In this document: piece by piece, positions 2,384-47,576 of the stretch
How the letters are laid out: each line of letters starts with the position of its first letter
Numbering within the stretch: the stretch's first letter is position 1
Source of the DNA: Bacteroidia bacterium
GTDB taxonomy: Bacteria > Bacteroidota > Bacteroidia > J057
Length of the DNA stretch: 64,000 nucleotides
NCBI GenBank assembly: GCA_030430205.1
Contig: JAUIGE010000005.1
Span: 1 to 64,000, forward strand
Direction: 5' to 3'
Made by a program: the position numbers and the translations under genes
Notes under the pieces: model-generated
What the model was told of the DNA's origin: nothing
What the model saw: only the letters and a program-made list of their open reading frames with translations
Database searches by the model: none

Positions 2384-3269
2384 CAAGAGACAAAAGCTGT
2401 CTCTGTGGTCTTACCAGGCGATACTGCTGATCTGTCTTGCCAGCATGCTAACGGCTTGTGAGCCGGGTGGCACAGGTATGGATGACAAGGAAGTCATCGC
2501 CAGCTATGGTGAAATTCCCCTTTACAGGGAGGAAATGGACTATTTCCTCCCGCGCTGGGAAAATCCTGCGGACAGCGCCCGTCTTGCCCAAATTTTCATC
2601 GAAGATTGGATGAAGGCCCAGGCAATCGCAGAGCGTGCCAGCAACGAGATCGGAGATCTGGAAGAAGAGGTCAGCTACAAGCGGAATGATTTTGAGCGGA
2701 GGCTGATTGAGTTCAAATTTGCCCAATACCTGATCGCCACCCAATTGGATACGGTGATTTCCGAGCAGGAAATTCGCAACTATTATCTAAAACAACCTGA
2801 TAAATTTATCAGCCAGGCCGTTTATTATTCGCATTTCTTTGTGAAAACAGAAGTCAATAATCCCAGCAGGGAAGTGAGCTGGATGCGTTCCGATACCCGG
2901 GAACAGATAGATGCACTCGCTGAATGGTCCCAAAAGGAAGCCGTTGAGTTTAAGTTGGATAGTTCTTTTGTGACTCAAACTGCAATAAGCAGTGTGCTGG
3001 AAGGGTCTCGTTTGAACATTTCTTACCTCCGATTGAACAATGTCTATACCTTTACCCAAAGGGAAGAGGACCAAAACTATTTTGTGATGTTCAAGTTGTT
3101 GGAGGAGGTAAAAGAGGGGGAATTGATGCCTCTAGGCATGTGCAGAGAAATAATTCGGGACATTTTATTAAATCAAAGAAAAAATCGTTTGGTACAAGCG
3201 ACGGAGACAGATCTCCTGAAAAATGCCAAGGCAAGCGGTAAAGTGAAAATAGTCGGGGCAGCAGAATAA
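2352..3269 (+). CDS. Lipoprotein of the SurA/PPIase cluster, no catalytic parvulin domain seen
   Basis: The predicted 305-residue product has a long n-region and a lipobox LTAC placing the modified cysteine at about residue 36. The body is charged and helical, with an IRNYY segment like the linker found before parvulin domains in SurA-type chaperones, but no GGDLG-type rotamase loop. I read it as a chaperone-like SurA N-domain relative. The start overlaps the upstream gene, and surA follows 69 bases later, so the three are probably co-transcribed. The function as a folding factor for envelope proteins is inferred from context and from the N-domain resemblance only. Confidence 0.75.
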   Translation: MMRFLKICSNNKRQKLSLWSYQAILLICLASMLTACEPGGTGMDDKEVIASYGEIPLYREEMDYFLPRWENPADSARLAQIFIEDWMKAQAIAERASNEIGDLEEEVSYKRNDFERRLIEFKFAQYLIATQLDTVISEQEIRNYYLKQPDKFISQAVYYSHFFVKTEVNNPSREVSWMRSDTREQIDALAEWSQKEAVEFKLDSSFVTQTAISSVLEGSRLNISYLRLNNVYTFTQREEDQNYFVMFKLLEEVKEGELMPLGMCREIIRDILLNQRKNRLVQATETDLLKNAKASGKVKIVGAAE

Positions 3270-3338
3270 TCATCAAAGGCAGCTTTTAGCAAAGCCTTTG
3301 CGTCTAGGCAGGGAGTTTAACCGCAAATACAAAAAACA

Positions 3339-4679
3339 ATGAAGATGAGTTTTCGCATCCTTTTAAGTCTGATACTCTTTCTTCCCATCAGCCAACTTCG
3401 GGCTCAGGAAGAAATCGTAGACCGCATTCTTGCTGTCATTGGAGAAGAAATTATCCTCCAGTCAGATGTCGACAACCAATATGCCTATCTGCAGATCAAC
3501 GGCAAGAAAGACGAAGGCAATATGCGTTGTGAGGTGATGGATCAGTTGATCGTTTCCAAACTGCTATTGGATAAAGCGCGTCAGGACAGTATCGTGGTAT
3601 CTGATGAGCAGGTAGACTCTGAAGTGGAGAGACGTATTCAGTATTTTATAGGGCAAATGGGCAGTGAAGCTCAGTTTGTGAATACCTATGGTAAGAGTGT
3701 CGCCCAATTTAGATTGGATATATGGGAAGACATCCAGAAGGAACTTCTGATCGATCAAATGCAAAATATCCTGATCTCGGGTCAGACCATCACGCCCCGG
3801 GAGGTAAAGCAGTTTTTCAAAGGAATGAACATTGACTCGGTGGGATTTCTTCCCGCAGAGATGCAACTGAATCATATAGTTGTTGTCCCTCCTTTTGACA
3901 AAAACAGCAAAGAGGAGGCAAAAGCAGCTTTGAGAGATATCCGCAAGCAAATAATAGAGGACGGAAAAGACTTTGGCTTTATGGCCATTGACCATTCTGA
4001 CGGGCCTTCAGGCCCGAGGGGAGGAAGCCTCGGTGAGGTCTACCGTGGACGAATGGTGCCTGAATTTGAGGAGGTGATTTATAGCTTGCGCGAAGGCGAA
4101 GTATCTGATGTGTTTGAAACCGAATTCGGTTTTCATATCGCCAAAGTACATAAAATCAAAGGGCAGGTGATCGAATGTAGCCACATCCTGAAAATTCCCA
4201 GGAGGAGCGCCAATGCCGATTCCATCGCCATGGACAGCCTGCGCAAGATTCTTGCACTGATATCCTCTGATTCGCTAACCTTTGAGCAGGCAGCCATCCG
4301 TTACTCACAGGATCGCGCCACCAAGGATTGTGGCGGCTGTATCTCCGATCCCCGGACCGGGGAGTTGCGCATCCCACTCGATCAGTTGGATTCGGATCTC
4401 TACTTCAAGGTAGAAGACATGAAAGTTGGGCAGATCTCTGAGCCCCTGGAATTGAGCTTGCCAGATGGTACCAATGCCTTTCATGTGATCTATGTGAAGC
4501 GCAAGATTCCCCCCCACAGACCAAGCCTGGAAAATGACTACAAGAAAATTCAAAAAGCTGCTTTGCAGTACAAGCAAGCAGAGAAATTTGAAGAGTGGTT
4601 AGAGTCCGCTAAGAAAAATATCTATATTGACATCAAACCAAACGTATGCAGTAATGCACTAAAAAGCTGGATAGAATAA
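3339..4679 (+). CDS. surA: SurA-like periplasmic chaperone/peptidyl-prolyl isomerase
   Basis: The 446-residue product has a cleavable signal peptide (cleavage near LRA-QEE). The mature N-terminus reads VDRILAVIGEEIILQSD, the hallmark of the SurA N-domain. Two parvulin domains follow, at about 175-275 (with GPRGGSLGE) and 278-390. The second has a CGGC pair in the loop where the first has GGS, so it may be disulfide-bonded or catalytically weak. SurA guides unfolded outer-membrane proteins to the BAM complex. The gene is third in the PPIase cluster, and its stop codon shares one base with the moxR start (TAATG). Confidence 0.88.
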   Translation: MKMSFRILLSLILFLPISQLRAQEEIVDRILAVIGEEIILQSDVDNQYAYLQINGKKDEGNMRCEVMDQLIVSKLLLDKARQDSIVVSDEQVDSEVERRIQYFIGQMGSEAQFVNTYGKSVAQFRLDIWEDIQKELLIDQMQNILISGQTITPREVKQFFKGMNIDSVGFLPAEMQLNHIVVVPPFDKNSKEEAKAALRDIRKQIIEDGKDFGFMAIDHSDGPSGPRGGSLGEVYRGRMVPEFEEVIYSLREGEVSDVFETEFGFHIAKVHKIKGQVIECSHILKIPRRSANADSIAMDSLRKILALISSDSLTFEQAAIRYSQDRATKDCGGCISDPRTGELRIPLDQLDSDLYFKVEDMKVGQISEPLELSLPDGTNAFHVIYVKRKIPPHRPSLENDYKKIQKAALQYKQAEKFEEWLESAKKNIYIDIKPNVCSNALKSWIE

Positions 4680-5659
4680 TGCTTAATTTTAATTCTGAAG
4701 TTGAAGCCGCAGAGGCACTTGCCGATAAATATCGCGCACTGAAGCAGGAAATTGCTAAAGTTATTATTGGACAGGAAGACGTAGTTGATAAGCTATTGAT
4801 CGCCCTTTTTTGTCGTGGTCACGCACTGTTGGTGGGAGTTCCGGGTCTGGCTAAGACCTTGCTCATCAGTACGATAGCGGAGATTTTGGACCTGAAATTC
4901 AGCCGAATTCAGTTTACCCCAGACCTCATGCCATCCGATATCCTGGGTACAGAGATTCTGGAGATCGATGATGATACCAATAAAAAGTATTTCAAATTTA
5001 TCAAAGGACCTGTTTTTGCCAATATGCTCCTGGCGGATGAGATCAACCGTACCCCTCCCAAAACGCAGGCAGCTTTGCTGGAGGCGATGCAGGAGCGAAA
5101 GGTGACGATCGCTGGCGAAAACCATGTGCTGGATGCTCCTTTCTTTGTTTTGGCTACCCAAAACCCCATCGAGCAGGAAGGTACCTATCCGCTGCCTGAA
5201 GCTCAGCTTGACCGCTTTATGTTCAACATCATTGTTGATTATCCTTCTATCCAGGAGGAGATTGAGATCGTTCGCAGAACGACCACAGGTACAGCGGAGA
5301 AAGTCAAATCCATCATGTCTCAGGAAGAAATCCTGTTTTTTCAGGAGTTGGTGCGCAAAGTGCCTGTCACCGACAATGTCATTGAGCATGCGGTAAGACT
5401 TGTCAACAAGACCCGTATCAGCACCGAGCATGCTTCAGAGCAGATCAAATCCATGATTACCTGGGGCGCAGGCCCTCGTGCTTCGCAGTACCTGATCCTG
5501 GGTGCCAAAGCACATGCTTTGCTGCGTGGCAAATATTCTCCTGATGAAGAAGATGTAAATGCTGTGGCAGTTTCTGTGCTGCGTCACCGCATCGTGCCTA
5601 GCTTTACCGCTGAGGCTGAGGGGATTACTGCTGATGATATCATCAGGAAGTTGTTCTAG
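4679..5659 (+). CDS. MoxR family AAA+ ATPase
   Basis: The 326-residue protein has a Walker A motif GVPGLAKT (about 53-60), a Walker B motif LLADEIN (about 116-122), the MoxR signature TPPKTQAALLEAMQE and a sensor motif ATQNP. MoxR ATPases are cytosolic chaperones that insert cofactors or remodel partners, usually vWA-domain proteins. Here the usual DUF58 and vWA partners do not follow. The gene instead closes the SurA cluster, a possible link to envelope protein maturation (inference). A hairpin followed by a T-run ends the transcription unit. Confidence 0.93.
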   Translation: MLNFNSEVEAAEALADKYRALKQEIAKVIIGQEDVVDKLLIALFCRGHALLVGVPGLAKTLLISTIAEILDLKFSRIQFTPDLMPSDILGTEILEIDDDTNKKYFKFIKGPVFANMLLADEINRTPPKTQAALLEAMQERKVTIAGENHVLDAPFFVLATQNPIEQEGTYPLPEAQLDRFMFNIIVDYPSIQEEIEIVRRTTTGTAEKVKSIMSQEEILFFQELVRKVPVTDNVIEHAVRLVNKTRISTEHASEQIKSMITWGAGPRASQYLILGAKAHALLRGKYSPDEEDVNAVAVSVLRHRIVPSFTAEAEGITADDIIRKLF

Positions 5660-5684
5660 AAATTACGTTTACAACAAATACGCA

Positions 5685-5767
5685 TCTCTCCGTCACTCCG
5701 ACTCTCCGTTCCATTTTAGCTTGTAATGCTAAACGGAGAGACGCAGAGGCGGAGAGAATTTTTTTTA
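5685..5767 (+). terminator. Rho-independent terminator after moxR
   Basis: Imperfect inverted arms rich in CTCTCCG and CGGAGAG, with an inner TTTAGC/GCTAAA stem, are followed by an eight-T run. The structure lies between moxR and the next gene. Confidence 0.65.
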
Positions 5768-5774
5768 AACCATC

Positions 5775-6449
5775 ATGCAACTAACTGAACATAGATTCGA
5801 AGCGCATCCCGATAAAGGCGAAGTATCCGCCATACTGCTCAAGCCCGAAGGTGCTACGCACTTATTGGTGCTGGGCCACGGCGCAGGCGCCGGGATGACC
5901 CACGCCAATATGGAAAGCATTGCCCAGGCAATGGCAGAGCAAAAAGTAGCTACTTTTCGCTACCAATTTCCCTATATGGAAAGGGGAGGAGGGCGCGACG
6001 CCCTTCCGGTAAGCCTGGCCACCGTCCGCAATGCGGTGGTAGAAGCAGCGAAGCTGGAGCCGGAATTGCCCTTGTTGGCCGGAGGCCACTCCTTTGGGGG
6101 ACGTATGACGTCGCTTGCGGCGGCGGAGGAGGCCCTTCCGGGCGTCAGGGGATTGATCTTTTTTTCCTTCCCCCTCCATGCGCCAGGCAAAGCCAGTGAC
6201 CACCGTGGCGCGCATTTGCCGGATATTAGCGTACCCATGCTCTTTCTCAGCGGCGATCGCGATACTTTCACAGATCATGCGTTTTTCCTGCCTTTGATCA
6301 AAAAATTAGGAGACAAAGCAAAGCTTCATCTCCTTGAAACTGGTAATCATGGATACAAAATCCTCAAGCGGACGAGGACAAATCCAGATGATATTTTTGT
6401 GGAAATAGGGAAGGAAGTTAGGGCCTGGTTGGATACTACTTTTCAATAA
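5775..6449 (+). CDS. Alpha/beta hydrolase, KANL3/Tex30-type
   Basis: The 224-residue protein shows the oxyanion-side motif GHGAGAG (about 35-41) and the nucleophile elbow GGHSFGGRM with Ser near 106. A likely acid sits in LSGDRDTF and the catalytic His in ETGNHGYK. It lacks a signal peptide and is therefore cytosolic. The family resembles small dienelactone-hydrolase-like esterases whose substrates are mostly unknown. Its last 14 bases overlap the end of the convergent BlaR1-like gene. Confidence 0.85.
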   Translation: MQLTEHRFEAHPDKGEVSAILLKPEGATHLLVLGHGAGAGMTHANMESIAQAMAEQKVATFRYQFPYMERGGGRDALPVSLATVRNAVVEAAKLEPELPLLAGGHSFGGRMTSLAAAEEALPGVRGLIFFSFPLHAPGKASDHRGAHLPDISVPMLFLSGDRDTFTDHAFFLPLIKKLGDKAKLHLLETGNHGYKILKRTRTNPDDIFVEIGKEVRAWLDTTFQ

Positions 6450-8817
6450 CAAACTTCTTCGTCACAACCGCACCGTCCATTTTCACCTGAAGGAGATATA
6501 TTCCATTGGCCAGCTTATTATCCTCTTCTTCATAGGTAAAGAGCTGTCTGGTCGCTTCAATATATCCACTAAACACCTTGTCAATGATTTGGCCATTCAG
6601 GTTGAGGATATGAATGTCAACCTCTCCTGCCTGCTTGACTTCAAAGTCAAAGTGAAGTTTGCCCTGAGAAGGATTGGGGAAAATGGTCCAATCACTTATG
6701 AATGAATTATCTGAAAAAGTTTTTCCTTTGGCAAATCTGGCGTTATCCTCTCCCGCCGGAACCTTATCCATCCATGTATTTTTATTCTTCTTTGTATCCG
6801 AAGTAAGCTCTTTTTTCAATTCTATAATAATCACAGTTTTCTTTTTTCCGTAGCGCTTTTCAGCTACTTCGTCAGTAATCAAAGTCCAGGCCTCAATATC
6901 TTCAGGAGGAGTAGTTGCAATGAATAATTGGAAAGCCTCCCAGGAGATAAAGCATTTCCCATCCTTTTTAATGAGGAGGACTTCTAGTTCCTTTTCCGGA
7001 GATTCTCCCACAAGTTCCATGGAAGGCCCCATGATGAAAGTATTATCCTTTTCATTGCCTTTATCATCGAGGCTTATAAATCTGATTTCTTCAAATTCCA
7101 GGATGACTTTCTGCTTATTCTCAAACTGTAAATCCTTGCATTCTTTTCTCGGAATATCCTCGACTTTCTCTCCTACCGGATGAATGTCTTCAACTACGAT
7201 TCCTTCATCTTCCCCTACCGAATGAGGATGTAATTCTTCATCAGCATGATTAAATGCATTTTCCGCTTTAGGAATAAACTCCGTAACCGTTTCTGTATCA
7301 AAAGATAAATCTTTCTCCTTCTTCGGGAAATCTGGAAAGCGCATGGCAACGCCCTTTTGGCCAGGCTTTAACAGATGCTTAGGGATCGGGCCAATGCTAA
7401 ATCCAATAGAGGATTTTCCTTTTTCAGGATTACGAATCATCTCTAAATTTAACAAGCCTGCATTCTGAAATTCTGATTTGGAATGTTTGTCTTTATAGGA
7501 AATTTCCATGAAATACCAGTCAGGCTCAGGGATGCTTTTTTCAAGCTTAAAATCAACTCCTAATTCCTTGAGTTCTTGTTGTAATTGAGCTATATCACTG
7601 TTTTTCGCTGTAATCAGATCAATAACCAGGTTAATTTTTTCTGCTGTGACGCTAAGCTTATAGGGTTCACCTTGTTGGGCAAAAATGTTATAGGCCTCAA
7701 TTGGAGATGGTTCTTCATCATGAGAGGCTGCAATGTCAGTCTGTACTTTTTGGGGAGTATTTTGGGCGTGTAAGTCCTGCTGGAAAGAAGTGAAAACAAA
7801 CAGCATCAAACAAAAAGTAAGAATGCCGATTCCGCTTATTCCAGGGGCTGTTCTTTGTGGTGTAGCCTGACCAAAAAGACGTTGTACTCTATTCGTGAAC
7901 TGTGATTTATTACCTGAAAAATTCATGACGAGATGGTTTTGATGGGTGGTAGATAGTTTTTGAACCGCAATCAAAGCCTGAGCATAGGTGATCTGATCAC
8001 CACTCCGTTTCAGCACCTGGTCGTCGCAACAGTGCTCCCTTTCCTGCTTCAACTGGCGGTAAATCCACCAATAGGCAGGGTGATAGAAGAATAGAATTTC
8101 GACCATCGAAAGCAGAAGATTGACTAAATAATCTGCCCTTCGGACATGGGCGAGTTCATGTAAAAGAATCGCTTCTATTTGTTCGGGAGGTAAATTGCTA
8201 AGCAAACTAGCGGGAATGAGGATGACGGGGCGAATAAAGCCCATGGCCAGGGGTTCCTGAATCTTTGAAGAGATCAGCAAGCGCACCTGTTGTGAGATGG
8301 CGAGTTGTCTTTTCAAAGCGCTGAGTTTGCGTTGCCAGGCAGCTTCGGGCTGCCAGACATGCCGTCGCGGAAGGCGGTATAGGTAGATCATACTACCCAT
8401 GAAGCGCAAGCTCCAAAACATAACACCCAGTAACCAAATTCCTACCAGGTAGGGGAGAAAAGGCTGTAAGTGATTGCTTACATCTGCAAGCGAAAAGGCA
8501 CTGCTCTCAGCAGAAATTCCCTCCGATGAATAAAGAACTTCATTCGAATCAGGAATAACATCGATTGCCAGCAGAGTGATCTCCGCTGAGAGAAGTGGCC
8601 CTTCTTCTGGCAGATGCTGCCAGCATGTGACGGCTGCCCAGAGCAGCATGAGAAATATCGCACCGACGCTAAGTCCATAGCGTAAAACCGCTGCGCGGTT
8701 GGGAATCAGGAATAACAACAATCGCAAAACAAGCGCGATCAGGATGCCTTGCCAGGTGGCATGGAGCAGGGTCCAGCCAATGGTTTGAACGAGGGGAATT
8801 TCGGTAAATGTCATCAT
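6436..8817 (-). CDS. BlaR1/MecR1-type M56 metallopeptidase with a C-terminal T9SS-like sorting domain
   Basis: This is an integral membrane protein of about 793 residues. The N-terminal half has several membrane segments and the M56 zinc site HELAHVRR with the downstream EREHCCDD glutamate. A last membrane segment (LTFCLMLFVFTSF) is followed by about 430 extracytoplasmic residues. The final 80 residues match a type A T9SS sorting domain (FPNPSQGKLHF, NGIYLLQVK). Family members sense a signal outside the cell and cleave a BlaI-type repressor. I place the start at 8817, where ATGATGA overlaps the blaI stop; an upstream in-frame ATG at 8850 lies inside blaI. A sorting tail on an inner-membrane sensor is odd, because T9SS cargo is normally secreted. 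Confidence 0.85.
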   Translation of the reverse strand: MMTFTEIPLVQTIGWTLLHATWQGILIALVLRLLLFLIPNRAAVLRYGLSVGAIFLMLLWAAVTCWQHLPEEGPLLSAEITLLAIDVIPDSNEVLYSSEGISAESSAFSLADVSNHLQPFLPYLVGIWLLGVMFWSLRFMGSMIYLYRLPRRHVWQPEAAWQRKLSALKRQLAISQQVRLLISSKIQEPLAMGFIRPVILIPASLLSNLPPEQIEAILLHELAHVRRADYLVNLLLSMVEILFFYHPAYWWIYRQLKQEREHCCDDQVLKRSGDQITYAQALIAVQKLSTTHQNHLVMNFSGNKSQFTNRVQRLFGQATPQRTAPGISGIGILTFCLMLFVFTSFQQDLHAQNTPQKVQTDIAASHDEEPSPIEAYNIFAQQGEPYKLSVTAEKINLVIDLITAKNSDIAQLQQELKELGVDFKLEKSIPEPDWYFMEISYKDKHSKSEFQNAGLLNLEMIRNPEKGKSSIGFSIGPIPKHLLKPGQKGVAMRFPDFPKKEKDLSFDTETVTEFIPKAENAFNHADEELHPHSVGEDEGIVVEDIHPVGEKVEDIPRKECKDLQFENKQKVILEFEEIRFISLDDKGNEKDNTFIMGPSMELVGESPEKELEVLLIKKDGKCFISWEAFQLFIATTPPEDIEAWTLITDEVAEKRYGKKKTVIIIELKKELTSDTKKNKNTWMDKVPAGEDNARFAKGKTFSDNSFISDWTIFPNPSQGKLHFDFEVKQAGEVDIHILNLNGQIIDKVFSGYIEATRQLFTYEEEDNKLANGIYLLQVKMDGAVVTKKFVIEK

Positions 8818-20257: not shown

Positions 20258-20306
20258 CAACGATTTTCGTTGGGAGATGTAGGGACGCATTATAATGCGT
20301 CCCTAC
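20258..20306. repeat. Palindromic intergenic repeat, copy A
   Basis: This 49-base unit is identical to copy B at 20337-20385. It ends in a perfect 28-base palindrome with half-site GTAGGGACGCATTA. Its position just after sprA would let it act as a terminator hairpin. Confidence 0.9.
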
Positions 20307-20336
20307 CAGGCAGTTGATCATCAATCAATTACCAAT

Positions 20337-20409
20337 CAACGATTTTCGTTGGGAGATGTAGGGACGCATTATAATGCGTCCCTACAGACTGATTGATTAT
20401 CAATCAATT
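20337..20409. repeat. Palindromic intergenic repeat, copy B with right flank
   Basis: The first 49 bases repeat copy A exactly. The 52 bases from 20358 to 20409 recur with four mismatches at 23654-23705, in the same orientation, on the far side of the accessory island. Confidence 0.9.
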
Positions 20410-20413
20410 TCAA

Positions 20414-20554
20414 ATGAAAAAGGAGGCCTTTTTTCCTTATATCAAGAAAGCCCGAAATGTGCTTCGGTACATTCAGGAACATTCCCCACTTTCACCTGTC
20501 TTAAGGCAGGTGAAGGTCGGGAGTGATTGGAAAATCTTCGATCTACTCAGGTAG
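20414..20554 (+). CDS. Small unrecognised protein (46 residues) in the DGR island
   Basis: An ATG-initiated frame encodes a basic, helical 46-residue peptide beginning MKKEAFFPYIKKARNVL and ending IFDLLR. It starts five bases after repeat copy B. The composition is protein-like, but I recognise no family, and the frame crosses two hairpins, so it may be a gene remnant. It could be the truncated N-terminus of something lost from the island. Confidence 0.35.
   Translation: MKKEAFFPYIKKARNVLRYIQEHSPLSPVLRQVKVGSDWKIFDLLR
20488..20517. repeat. Inverted repeat near the FGE-like tail
   Basis: TTCACCTG and CAGGTGAA arms flank a CTTAAG centre, giving a near-perfect 24-base palindrome that can be extended by three more pairs. 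A second hairpin, ATCTAC-tcag-GTAGAT, lies at 20541-20556. In DGRs a small stem-loop lies just downstream of the variable repeat, and on the minus strand these lie downstream of the FGE-like sequence. Confidence 0.5.
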
Positions 20555-20633
20555 ATGCAGGACGCCGGACGGGACGGAAGCTTGCACTGTGTCCTACTCC
20601 TTGAAGCATAACAGGCGGGCATGTTTCCGTAAG

Positions 20634-20777
20634 GGCGAGTCGAAAGCCGACATGGTTGTTGCGGTTGTCGTGGTTGTTGTTGTTGCGGTAGGCTACGCGA
20701 CAATTGCTGGCGTCGTTGTTCCAGCTGCCGCCGCGTATCACGCGGTGATCGCCCGATGGTCCGTCGCCACTGGTACA
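20634..20777 (-). other. DGR template/variable-repeat-like FGE (C-type lectin fold) tail
   Basis: Read on the minus strand, this stretch encodes the C-terminal core of formylglycine-generating-enzyme-like proteins: RVIRGGSWNN, then NCRVAYRNNNN, then HDNRNNHVGFRLA. Ten of about 35 codons are Asn (nine AAC, one AAT). This is the composition of DGR template repeats, where adenines mark sites that are randomised during copying. The upstream part of an FGE domain is absent: the frame starts at 20828 and nothing FGE-like precedes GPSGDHRV. It is therefore either a template repeat or the severed variable repeat of a lost target gene. The adjacent avd gene supports the DGR reading. Three codons differ from the plain Asn pattern (GAC, TAC, CAT), as expected if some adenines had been mutated. 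Confidence 0.75.
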
Positions 20778-21085
20778 CCCAACTGGACTGGATCCTGGAC
20801 AAATGTGAAAAACTGCCCCGGGCAGCACGATTCACCCTCGCAAGGCGCATGGCAGACGAGAGCATAGACATCATCGAGCTGATCGTGGAGGCCATCTATA
20901 CCCCCCAAAAGCAACGCCGCTACAAACTCAAAGCGATCAACATGAAGCTGGAAAAGCTGCGTATCTTCTTTCGCATCTGCCATGACAGGCAGTATATCTC
21001 TACCCAGCAGTACGCCTATATCTCCGAAAAGGTAAATGAGGCTGGCCGTATGGTAGGAGGCTGGATAAAAAGCCCATTTCTTTGA
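20756..21085 (+). CDS. avd: DGR accessory variability determinant (Avd-like four-helix bundle)
   Basis: The 109-residue product matches the bAvd/four-helix-bundle family in length and in signature segments: LDWILDKCEKLPRAARFTLARRM at the N-terminus (a W..P..E.FPR..RFTLG pattern in the family), IIELIVEAIY in helix 2, LEKLRIFFRICHD in helix 3, and the C-terminal EAGRMVGGWIKS. Avd pentamers bind the DGR reverse transcriptase and the template RNA and are needed for mutagenic retrohoming. The gene looks intact. Unusually, it starts inside the FGE-like repeat of the opposite strand, and no reverse transcriptase follows. It overlaps the 3' end of the NACHT gene tail to tail. Confidence 0.85.
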   Translation: MVRRHWYTQLDWILDKCEKLPRAARFTLARRMADESIDIIELIVEAIYTPQKQRRYKLKAINMKLEKLRIFFRICHDRQYISTQQYAYISEKVNEAGRMVGGWIKSPFL

Positions 21086-22080
21086 TTCTTTTTTGCATTA
21101 ATATCCAATGCCACCTCTCTGGAAAATCGCATGAGTTCCTTTTCGTATTTTTCTCTTCTTGCAAGCCCGACACGATTTGCTTCTCTCTCTATCCATTTAT
21201 TGATTAACTCAGCATAGATTTCGTGAGTATCCTGGAAATCTGCCTCACTTTCCAATAAATCATTCACATAGTTGAGCAGCATGGGCCTAACCATAAGGTT
21301 AGGGGAGCGTTGCACGATTTCATACGCTTTTGCACGTTTTTCCTTTTCTTTTCGTGGATAGCGTTTTTTCAGGTAAGCTTTGATTTCTTCATCGGTTAAA
21401 GGAGAAAGGTATAGGCGATTGAAAGTATGGTATCTCTCCTGTCCGTAATATTTTTGGAGCTTGGTCTCAAAAGGTTCTTCTTTTTGGGAAGTAAAAAATT
21501 GGGTTCTGCTAGTTATGACTACTTCTCTGAACTCCTTAACTGTCTCAATAATCTCGTCTATTCTTTTTTGATAATCCTCCACAGCTTTTTGGTCTTCATC
21601 AAAGGCATCCAAAAGCAATACCGTCCTCTTTTTGTCCTCAATTCCACTGATTTTTACCAATACTTCCGGATCGTTGAGGTGAAAGAAACGCATATCGTAT
21701 GCTGGACCGAATATCCTATCCTGCTTGATAAATTGCATATAGAGATTGATCAGGAAAGTAGTCTTTCCCATACCTGAATCTGCCAGAATCAGATAAAACC
21801 GATGGGCATCTTTTTCTTTGAAAGCTTCTTTCAGGAAAAAAGGAATAAGCGGTTGGCGGGCATGAATAATGCCTTTTTTGCCTGGCTCATCATATTGAGA
21901 AGGGGGAGTACTTTGGTAGTGAGTTTCTATAAAATGCTCGGTGGCTTGCTTGACTTCATATCGGTCAAAATAAGGAAATAGATCCCGTTCCAGTAGCTTT
22001 TTTTGTTGGAACTTATAAACGAGGCCTAAACCTTTCCAGAGATATTGGCCTGCTTTTTCGATGAGTCCTAATTCTACCAT
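21016..22080 (-). CDS. NACHT-type STAND NTPase, probably 3'-truncated
   Basis: From the ATG at 22080 the frame gives about 354 residues; an ATG at 22257 would extend it across the divergent neighbour's start. The NTPase core has a P-loop ADSGMGKTTFL, a Walker B VLLLDAFDED and a sensor segment VVITSRTQFF. A helical region with LSPLTDEEIKAYLKKRYP follows, typical of bacterial NACHT modules. STAND proteins are usually 800 residues or more with C-terminal sensor repeats. Here the product ends just after the NTPase in about 22 residues that are antisense to avd, so the sensor is missing. Some NACHT proteins are DGR targets with FGE-fold tails, and such a tail lies 240 bases further on, on the same strand. 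Loss or replacement of the middle part is a plausible history. Confidence 0.75.
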   Translation of the reverse strand: MVELGLIEKAGQYLWKGLGLVYKFQQKKLLERDLFPYFDRYEVKQATEHFIETHYQSTPPSQYDEPGKKGIIHARQPLIPFFLKEAFKEKDAHRFYLILADSGMGKTTFLINLYMQFIKQDRIFGPAYDMRFFHLNDPEVLVKISGIEDKKRTVLLLDAFDEDQKAVEDYQKRIDEIIETVKEFREVVITSRTQFFTSQKEEPFETKLQKYYGQERYHTFNRLYLSPLTDEEIKAYLKKRYPRKEKEKRAKAYEIVQRSPNLMVRPMLLNYVNDLLESEADFQDTHEIYAELINKWIEREANRVGLARREKYEKELMRFSREVALDINAKKNQRNGLFIQPPTIRPASFTFSEI

Positions 22081-22203
22081 GGGTCTGGTGGGATTTACTT
22101 TGGATTGAAGATAGGAATTCTTGCAGAAGGGAAAAAGGTGTGGGCTTATATCTTTTATATCCAGCCAAAACTCCCTATATTTATATAGATTTGGCTGAAT
22201 ATA

Positions 22204-23646
22204 ATGACAAAAAAGACAAAACTTATAGGAAGAATCAAGGAGCAAATGGTGCTTCATGAAGCGCTAGACTCTCCTGATGCCGAATTGATTTCCGTGGTTG
22301 GCAGGCGCCGGGTAGGAAAGACGTTTTTGATCAAAACGGTATATGAGGACCACATTTGCTTCGACCTGGCGGGGGTACGGGATGCGCCTATGAAGGAGCA
22401 AATACAGAACTTTAGCCTTCGATTCAACCGAATGGCTAAGCCAGAAAAACCTATAAAACCTCCCAAAAACTGGCTCGAAGTTTTTTACAAATTGATAGAC
22501 TACCTGGAGGCGAACAGAAGCGACAAAAAGCAAGTGGTGTTTTTTGATGAACTTCCGTGGTTGGCGACCAAGCGGTCCGGATTTCTCAGGGCTTTTGATG
22601 TTTTTTGGAATAGCTGGGCTGTTTATGAAAATATTGTGGTGGTGATTTGTGGATCAGCAGCTTCCTGGATGATCAAAAAGGTCGTCAATCATAAAGGAGG
22701 ATTACATAATCGCATTACGCGCCGTCTGGAACTCAAACCTTTCACACTGAGCGAAACAGCAGCTTATTTAACTCAAAGAAATGTCTTTCTGGATCACTAT
22801 CAAATGGCTCAGATATATATGGCCATGGGTGGGATTCCACATTATCTCAAAGAGATCAAGCCGGGATGGAGTGCTGCCAGGAGTATTGAAGAGGTTTGTT
22901 TTTCCAATACGGGTTTGTTAAAGGATGAATTTTCCCGTTTGTATCCTGCTTTGTTTGAAGATGCAGAGAATCATATCGCGATTATTCGCGCATTGGCCGG
23001 CAAGCAAAAAGGCTTGTTGAGAAGCGACATCATCCGTGCAACCCAATTGCCAAGTGGGGGAAGCATTTCCCTTGTTCTGGAAGAGTTGGAACAATCCGGA
23101 TTCATCGCGGCCTATTATCCTTTTGGCAAGAAGAAAAAGGGAAAGCTGTATCGTTTGACAGATGAATATTCTCTTTTCTATCTTAGGTTTATCGAAAATA
23201 AGGTACATGAAGGAGAGGAGGTCTGGCATGGATTGGGCCAAAGCCAGGAATACATAAGCTGGAGTGGATATGCTTTTGAGAATATTTGCCTGAAACATAT
23301 TCCCCAAATCAAAAAAGCATTGGGTATATCTGGTGTTTATTCTCAATCTGCTACTTTTTACAAAAAAGGAGATGCCGGGACTGCGGGTGCACAAATTGAT
23401 TTGTTAATTGACAGAAAGGATCATGTGATCAACCTGGTTGAAGTAAAATTTTACAATAAAAAATATGTACTTGATAAAGCCTCTGCCCAGCTATTAAGGG
23501 AAAGAGCTGGCATCTTTCAGGAAACTACACAGACCGCAAAACAGTTGTTTTGGACGCTGATCACGACTTTTGGAATGAATCAGAATGAGCATAGTTTGGG
23601 CCTGGTTCAGCAGATCCTGACTTTGGAGGATTTGTTTGGGGAGTGA
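22204..23646 (+). CDS. AAA+ ATPase with C-terminal DUF234 nuclease-like domain
   Basis: The 480-residue protein carries a P-loop GRRRVGKTFLI, a Walker B VVFFDELPW and the GSAASWM sensor found in the archaeal-type ATP-binding family. It also has a winged-helix segment, and a C-terminal DUF234 region with LIDRKDHVINLVEVKF, which resembles the D...ExK core of PD-(D/E)XK nucleases. Such genes are mobile and scattered, and some behave as defence or toxin modules; the function here is unknown. The gene is divergent from the NACHT gene with about 120 bases between their likely starts, and it is followed directly by the right-hand palindromic repeat. Confidence 0.85.
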   Translation: MTKKTKLIGRIKEQMVLHEALDSPDAELISVVGRRRVGKTFLIKTVYEDHICFDLAGVRDAPMKEQIQNFSLRFNRMAKPEKPIKPPKNWLEVFYKLIDYLEANRSDKKQVVFFDELPWLATKRSGFLRAFDVFWNSWAVYENIVVVICGSAASWMIKKVVNHKGGLHNRITRRLELKPFTLSETAAYLTQRNVFLDHYQMAQIYMAMGGIPHYLKEIKPGWSAARSIEEVCFSNTGLLKDEFSRLYPALFEDAENHIAIIRALAGKQKGLLRSDIIRATQLPSGGSISLVLEELEQSGFIAAYYPFGKKKKGKLYRLTDEYSLFYLRFIENKVHEGEEVWHGLGQSQEYISWSGYAFENICLKHIPQIKKALGISGVYSQSATFYKKGDAGTAGAQIDLLIDRKDHVINLVEVKFYNKKYVLDKASAQLLRERAGIFQETTQTAKQLFWTLITTFGMNQNEHSLGLVQQILTLEDLFGE

Positions 23647-23653
23647 AGAAAGC

Positions 23654-23705
23654 GTAGGGGCGCATGATAATGCATCCCTACAGACTAATTGATTATCAAT
23701 CAATT
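23654..23705. repeat. Palindromic intergenic repeat, copy C (right edge of island)
   Basis: The 52 bases match 20358-20409 at 48 positions. The copy lies 8 bases after the ATPase stop codon and supplies the last codons and stop of the convergent phosphatase gene. Confidence 0.85.
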
Positions 23706-47387: not shown

Positions 47388-47576
47388 ACGAGCCCCGAAG
47401 GGGCAATATATATCAACATAGGGCAAAGCCCTATGATAGTCAGCCCGCTACAAACCGTGAGAGCCCTGCAAGGGCGAAGTATCAGGTATATCGCCCTTGC
47501 AGGGCTACTATGCAGAAGCCGTTTGTCACAGGGCTTTGCCCTGTGTTGATGTATGTCGCCTCTTCGAGGCTTTGGG
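47388..47576. repeat. Nested palindromic (MITE-like) element
   Basis: Outer arms (GAGCCCCGAAGGGGC...CAACATAGGG and its inverse CCCTGTGTTG...GCCTCTTCGAGGC) enclose a perfect 16-bp stem, AGCCCTGCAAGGGCGA / TCGCCCTTGCAGGGCT (47462-47477 and 47491-47506). The remainder of the 47288-47695 gap shows no gene. Elements of this style are common in Bacteroidota intergenic DNA. Confidence 0.85.

What the first reader, a model, noticed from the sequence alone, without database searches (positions are those of the whole stretch)
20414..21085. Orphan or decayed diversity-generating retroelement without its reverse transcriptase
An intact Avd-like gene (20756-21085) and an Asn-codon-rich FGE/C-type-lectin tail (minus strand, 20634-20777) are two of the three parts of a DGR. 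The tail has nine AAC codons plus one AAT, the adenine-rich pattern that mutagenic reverse transcription randomises. Two features are unlike classical DGRs. The repeat and avd are on opposite strands and overlap, and no reverse transcriptase is encoded between sprA and the EEP gene. Either the cassette works in trans with a reverse transcriptase elsewhere, or it is a remnant. The sequence shows the motifs; the DGR identity rests on family knowledge; the trans-acting idea is inference.
Basis: partly seen in the sequence, partly recalled or inferred. Interest (0 to 1): 0.88.

Follow-up and report, generated by a model that had tools for sequence, protein, structure and literature searches.

The report
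Broken remnant of a hypermutation cassette
Two genuine parts of a bacterial protein-diversifying machine (its RNA template and its helper protein) sit here without the enzyme or the target gene, most likely as leftovers of a cassette broken by deletions, while a different and complete machine is found elsewhere in the same genome.

Summary
20756-21085 is a true Avd (NCBIfam DivGenRetAVD 100 bits, cut-off 80; Pfam bAvd 68, cut-off 40). The minus-strand FGE tail has 9 AAC and 1 AAT in 28 codons. But the tail is a template repeat (TR), not a target: it has no FGE body and has the form of the two other TRs of this genome. The genome does hold a DGR reverse transcriptase, 167 kb away on the same contig, in a complete HRDC-type cassette (two VRs, mismatches only at TR adenines). 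In 25 of 25 members of that RT clade (100/100 support) no avd was found in the stretch held, and the window TR lacks the clade's TR flank motif. It instead shows a CAAGG-loop hairpin common beside avd-linked TRs. No VR for it was found in the assembly. The STAND NTPase beside avd is cut off inside the avd 3' end, pairwise Avd homology begins only at residue 5-6, palindromic 52-bp repeats bracket the island, and the one relative with sprA and EEP as neighbours lacks it. Best reading: a decayed avd-type DGR that lost RT and target. Trans use of the remote RT is not supported. Incomplete DGR loci are already described, so interest is modest.

The parts
20640..20744 (-). Template-repeat core (RVIRGGSW...NNNN...VGFR); the TR as a whole is about 20634-20755 (ends not exactly known)
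   Evidence: PF03781 match
20585..20617 (-). TR 3' flank hairpin with CAAGG at the loop, as beside other avd-linked FGE tails
   Evidence: CAAGG in 12 of 17 avd-linked tails, window included; shuffle expectation 1.4; the 81-nt flank as a whole is not unusually stable, z -0.29
20480..20525 (.). Palindrome/hairpin about 110 nt past the TR, possible terminator
   Evidence: z -3.74
20756..21085 (+). avd; pairwise homology to other Avds runs from residue 5-6 (about 20771) to about 21070
21016..22257 (-). nSTAND3 NTPase ORF, truncated: homology stops at residue 396-405 (about 21043-21072), inside the avd 3' end
22204..23646 (+). ATPase_2 (PF01637) protein inside the same island
20358..20409 (+). 52-bp palindrome-bearing repeat, left bracket of the island (another left copy at 20279-20330)
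23654..23705 (+). 52-bp repeat, right bracket, 92% identical to the left one

Best explanation
The locus is the remnant of an avd-type diversity-generating retroelement. An ancestral cassette probably read, on the minus strand, STAND NTPase with a C-terminal FGE sensor (VR), then avd on the opposite strand, then RT, then TR. One deletion removed the sensor with its VR up to the avd 3' end; a second removed the RT and the first codons of avd, so that TR now abuts avd. What is left is a TR with its 3' hairpin and an almost full-length Avd, with nothing to copy the template and nothing to copy it into. Shown: Avd, TR, no VR found in the assembly, no avd-type RT found, truncated NTPase, repeat brackets, no island in the one relative where sprA and EEP are neighbours. 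Inferred: that the lost sensor was FGE with the VR, that RT lay between avd and TR, and the two deletions. Elsewhere in the genome a separate HRDC-type DGR has VRs that bear the marks of mutagenesis.
For: Avd and TR identity. The A-to-N pattern of the TR finds only itself in the genome at up to 3 mismatches; of the 28 FGE hit loci, scanned with the 35-codon TR core, none but the TR itself is a match (best other, L018: 16 of 74 non-A mismatches, against 0 of 77 for both VRs of the complete DGR). Three RVT_1 hits in the genome: the C60 one is HRDC-type; no avd or TR was seen beside the other two in the stretches listed. RT tree: avd-less clade of 25 rows, 100/100. TR flank: TGA[AC]CAG in 17 of 19 HRDC-type tails, 0 of 17 avd-linked tails; CAAGG in 12 of 17 avd-linked tails, 2 of 19 HRDC-type (the window is one of the 17). 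RT in cis is the rule: of 18 avd loci with at least 1.2 kb held past avd, 17 have an RT there. NTPase homologues continue 299-423 aa further in 4 of 4 relatives. In L047 and L048 avd stands opposite to target and RT. sprA and EEP are neighbours in G001, about 335 bp between aligned ends; 52-bp repeats bracket the island.
Against: The avd frame is intact, the protein agrees in the 15 columns that are invariant in a 7-Avd alignment, and the TR keeps its codon pattern, so loss is recent or some part is still selected. NF033474 aligns from residue 2 (profile position 3 of 104), so any N-terminal loss is small. The two closest NTPase relatives (46-47%) carry what I read by eye as LRR, not FGE, C-termini; only the G004 relative (32%) ends in an FGE-like domain. 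In L047 the TR that has a matching VR lies between target and avd; the tail after its RT has no VR found, so the inferred 'RT then TR' order with avd inverted has no clean living example. The CAAGG motif was noticed and counted on the same set; 8 of the 17 tails (7 of the 12 hits) come from one genus, and L048's tail is the end of a full FGE gene. The empty site rests on G001 alone: stretches past sprA in five other relatives (G002, G003, G005, G007, G008) had neither EEP nor island genes. RT-less avd loci exist elsewhere (L131/L126, L051), so an RT-less layout need not mean death.
Confidence: 0.8

Rival explanations
1. A living satellite: window TR and Avd work in trans with the RT at C60:187750-188754.
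For: The genome has one DGR-type RT and one Avd. A second RT-less locus, C51, has its own TR and VR with 18 of 28 A and 1 of 77 non-A mismatches and no RVT_1 hit on that contig, so this RT may serve remote TRs. G308 has an RT-less NTPase-FGE(VR)-avd-TR cassette (13 of 27 A, 4 of 78 non-A mismatches) and one RVT_1 hit, on another contig.
Against: No avd in the stretches held for 25 of 25 rows of the RT's clade; same-genus G001 and family member G009 have this RT and no Avd match. TR51 shares the flank of the RT's own TR, the window TR does not. No VR found.
Confidence: 0.08
2. Structural variant or assembly gap: other cells, or missing sequence, hold the intact cassette.
For: Thiohalocapsa PB-PSB1 has intact and disrupted DGR variants side by side (PMC10907252, section 7 read). 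The assembly has 80 contigs.
Against: Completeness is given as 100%; the locus lies inside a 230-kb contig and the window TR is unique in the assembly, so collapse is unlikely.
Confidence: 0.1
3. Avd has been kept for another nucleic-acid-binding role, unlinked to DGR action.
For: Intact frame with conserved residues.
Against: No recurrent neighbour was seen that supports this; of 59 relatives searched besides the own genome 3 had an Avd match, and the only one in the same family, G004, has avd directly before an RT.
Confidence: 0.02

Closest known systems
Avd-type DGRs (BPP-1 type; avd, TR, RT, VR)
   Same: Avd family, adenine-rich body-less TR, a hairpin in the TR 3' flank
   Different: no RT in cis and no VR found; TR opposite to and abutting avd
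HRDC-type DGRs (described in Treponema denticola, PMC4891356; here C60:186-190 kb)
   Same: adenine-rich FGE-type repeat with Asn codons; same genome
   Different: HRDC protein instead of avd in the loci held here; another TR flank
Incomplete or RT-less DGR loci of Thiohalocapsa PB-PSB1 (PMC10907252)
   Same: RT missing, MITE-like palindromic repeats next to the locus
   Different: there some targets match a TR elsewhere and are diversified, best explained by trans action; here no VR was found
DGR remnants in Treponema denticola isolates (PMC4891356)
   Same: partial DGR left after loss of core parts
   Different: there the target gene remains, here TR and avd remain

Membership tests
Avd / bAvd family | profile score over curated cut-off | tested here: met
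   NF033474 100.1 (80); PF22296 68 (40)
Functional avd-type DGR | DGR reverse transcriptase in the cassette | tested here: not met
   no tblastn hit of four DGR RTs in the window; genome-wide RVT_1 hits lie on C13, C31 and at C60:187999
Functional avd-type DGR | template repeat rich in AAY codons, without target body | tested here: met
   9 AAC + 1 AAT of 28 codons; tail ORF of 93 aa has only the FGE C-terminus
Functional avd-type DGR | VR with mismatches confined to TR adenines | tested here: not met
   in an assembly of 80 contigs
Functional avd-type DGR | TR 3' flank like that of other avd-linked TRs | tested here: met
   CAAGG hairpin; motif of my own, found post hoc, absent in 5 of 17 avd-linked tails
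HRDC-type DGR (remote RT) | TR flank with TGA[AC]CAG about 44-47 nt after GFR | tested here: not met
   17 of 19 clade tails have it, the window TR does not; motif of my own, found post hoc
Active DGR | adenine mutagenesis observed | not testable with these tools
   needs reads or expression

The most novel reading that the evidence does not exclude
A dispersed DGR: one HRDC-type RT serves several template cassettes across the chromosome (own cassette, RT-less C51 cassette, and the window TR), with a lone remote Avd as an optional helper that lets it use a foreign type of TR. This would be modular, trans-assembled hypermutation with template and accessory supplied from separate loci.
Probability: 0.05. 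Interest if true: 0.7.

Novelty: new member of a known kind. Interest (0 to 1): 0.3.

Why it matters
It shows how a DGR may fall apart: target sensor and RT go, TR and avd stay. It also gives a handle on accessory dependence: in the loci held here, FGE DGRs with and without avd separate by RT clade and by TR flank motif. The RT-less C51 cassette of the same genome is the better place to test trans action.

Tried and rejected
Window TR as a VR: rejected, no FGE body and 10 Asn codons in 28, while VRs and other FGE tails matched by my pattern had 0-2. L018 (C14:267214-267894) as its VR: A bias p=0.0013, but pairs that do not home, such as window TR against VR51, give p=2e-5, so A bias alone says nothing; 16 of 74 non-A mismatches reject it. 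C13 and C31 reverse transcriptases as the missing partner: C13 is a 498-aa RT whose counterpart in G004 seems, by eye, to have the same neighbour gene; C31 is a 162-aa piece beside cas1; I saw no TR or FGE partner in the ORF lists of those two loci. The G004 RVT_1 hit on C1434 is of the C13 kind by eye; G004's DGR RT is cut by a contig end. Folding of the whole 81-nt TR flank: z -0.29, not informative. The TR/VR finder gave no pair on L044, L045, L048, L051, L053 and L102. Rfam at gathering cut-offs gave nothing at the locus. Whether RT-less avd loci are common: of the 21 avd loci besides the window, 17 have an RT in the stretch held, 3 are cut short by a contig end, and one (L126, the same place as L131) has none. 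Literature searches for orphan or incomplete DGRs, HRDC accessories and conserved template-RNA structure gave the papers cited; I did not see the CAAGG or TGAACAG flank motifs in the passages read, but I read no DGR paper whole, so their novelty is open.

Full report
Observation. The ORF at 20756-21085(+) is an Avd protein: NCBIfam DivGenRetAVD 100.1 bits (cut-off 80) and Pfam bAvd 68 bits (cut-off 40). It is the only bAvd hit in the 7.24-Mb genome. On the minus strand, 20640-20744 encodes RVIRGGSWNNDASNCRVAYRNNNNHDNRNNHVGFR, an FGE C-terminal tail (PF03781) with 9 AAC and 1 AAT in the 28 codons between GG-x-W and GFR. No RT was recognised between sprA and the EEP gene, and tblastn with four DGR RTs finds none in the window.

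What the tail is. The genome has two more such tails: C60:189734-189842 and C51:21496-21614, in the same 28-codon register with 11 and 10 Asn codons. Both are template repeats. TR60 has two VRs in flanking FGE genes with 17 and 18 of 28 A mismatches and 0 of 77 non-A mismatches; TR51 has one VR with 18 of 28 and 1 of 77. The window tail has the TR form and no FGE body, so it is read as a TR. No VR was found for it: the A-to-N pattern hits only itself at up to 3 mismatches, and among the 28 PF03781 hit loci (the TRs themselves included) the best other locus has 16 of 74 non-A mismatches.

Where the RT is. The genome has three RVT_1 hits. One, C60:187750-188754 (RT60; positions), lies in a complete cassette FGE(VR)-HRDC-RT-FGE(VR)-TR, 167 kb from the window locus on the same contig. 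Its relatives in G001 (61%) and G009 (53%) sit in HRDC-RT-TR cassettes, and those two genomes gave no Avd match at E 1e-4. In a phylum-wide draw of 395 genomes, the own one included, 35 had an RT match at E 1e-40. In the loci held, no avd was found near any RT with more than 49% identity to RT60; HRDC was found in all of these but two short ones, L183 and L184. These loci reach about 1.5 kb on each side, less at contig ends, and several of the same genomes carry an avd elsewhere. In an RT tree of 50 rows the 25 avd-less rows form one clade with 100/100 support. The labels were set by me from the tblastn results; L187, a short locus without an avd hit, was labelled avd because its genome has one on another contig, and it falls outside the clade. 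L190 (38% identity, neither avd nor HRDC in its stretch) was not put into the tree.

Which type the window TR is. After the GFR codons, 17 of 19 distinct RT60-type tails have TGA[AC]CAG in the 30-58 nt window; 0 of 17 tails from avd-bearing loci have it, the window included. CAAGG is found within 110 nt in 12 of the 17 avd-linked tails, the window included (expectation from mononucleotide shuffles 1.4), and in 10 of the 12 it lies at the loop of a predicted hairpin; 2 of 19 RT60-type tails have CAAGG. Eight of the 17 come from one genus (7 of the 12 hits); outside it 5 of 9 have CAAGG. Both motifs were seen first and counted afterwards on the same set, and the L048 entry is the tail of a full FGE gene. 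Tails with fewer than 8 Asn were dropped by the filter, among them the G001 TR, which shows TGAACAG.

Scars. The minus-strand nSTAND3 NTPase (21016-22257) aligns with relatives up to residue 396-405 and then stops, while 4 of 4 relatives go on for 299-423 residues. Its homology ends inside the avd 3' end. The two closest relatives end in sequence that reads by eye as LRR, the G004 relative in an FGE-like domain. Pairwise Avd homology starts at residue 5-6, and the start codon 20756 lies at the edge of the TR; the family profile, however, aligns from residue 2. In L047 (Methylacidiphilum MAG) and L048 (Saprospirales MAG) avd stands opposite to target and RT. In L047 one TR, with a matching VR, lies between target and avd, and a second TR-like tail follows the RT. 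In same-strand avd cassettes TR can follow RT (L130, L049, L055). Deleting sensor and RT from a layout target / inverted avd / RT / TR gives the window arrangement without an inversion; this step is inference, and no intact cassette of exactly that order was found.

The island. 52-bp repeats that carry a palindrome stand at 20279, 20358 and 23654. In G001, the same genus, sprA and EEP are neighbours with about 335 bp between aligned ends. In five other relatives the stretch past sprA held neither EEP nor island genes, so the empty site rests on G001. MITE-like repeats that replace RT or TR are described at DGR loci of Thiohalocapsa PB-PSB1 (PMC10907252, section 7 read; other passages).

How usual the missing RT is. 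Of 18 avd loci with at least 1.2 kb held past avd, 17 have an RT there. The exception is G308's second cassette (L126/L131), which has target, avd and TR. L051 has target and avd, with no RT hit in 6 kb downstream.

Known context. In reconstituted BPP-1, inactivating Avd cuts the repair frequency to about 1e-9, and the spacer 3' of TR recruits bRT-Avd (PMC12875486, passages). HRDC accessory genes are described in T. denticola DGRs, with remnants in some isolates (PMC4891356, passages). Inverted layouts are described (PMC3521204, passages). The global survey PMC8144416 notes that it would miss remote targets (passage). So the parts and the decay are of a known kind.

Verdict. Observation confirmed; interpretation partly supported. 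Best reading: remnant of an avd-type DGR (0.8). Trans use by RT60 is possible but disfavoured (0.08). The more interesting trans case in this genome is C51, which has TR and VR with adenine-restricted mismatches and no RVT_1 hit on its contig.

Noticed in passing
L008 (G000:C51:14000-30000), 7414-8544(-): RT-less DGR cassette: FGE gene with VR plus own TR (18/28 A, 1/77 non-A mismatches) beside an LRR-GTPase protein with a weak TIR-like match near its C-terminus; no RVT_1 hit on this contig.
   Followed up: partly
L131 (G308:C34:1-12000), 3240-6123(-): NTPase-FGE(VR)-avd-TR cassette without an RT hit, in a genome whose only RVT_1 hit is on another contig; 13/27 A and 4/78 non-A mismatches.
   Followed up: partly
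L051, 3110-5874(+): Kinase-FGE gene followed by avd, no RT hit in 6 kb downstream and no TR/VR pair found (Phycisphaerales MAG).
   Followed up: partly
L009 (G000:C60:182000-198000), 4349-7910(+): Complete HRDC-type DGR with two VRs, followed by an LRR-GTPase protein; in G001 and G009 a similar protein follows the RT.
   Followed up: yes
L010, 1174-3598(-): 498-aa reverse transcriptase next to a gene that by eye resembles the neighbour of a similar RT in G004 (L153); possibly a conserved pair.
   Followed up: no
L012, 388-1938(+): cas1 followed by a 162-aa RT fragment.
   Followed up: no
window 47391-47435(-): Rfam Acido-Lenti-1 sRNA match, 40.1 bits over gathering 37.
   Followed up: no
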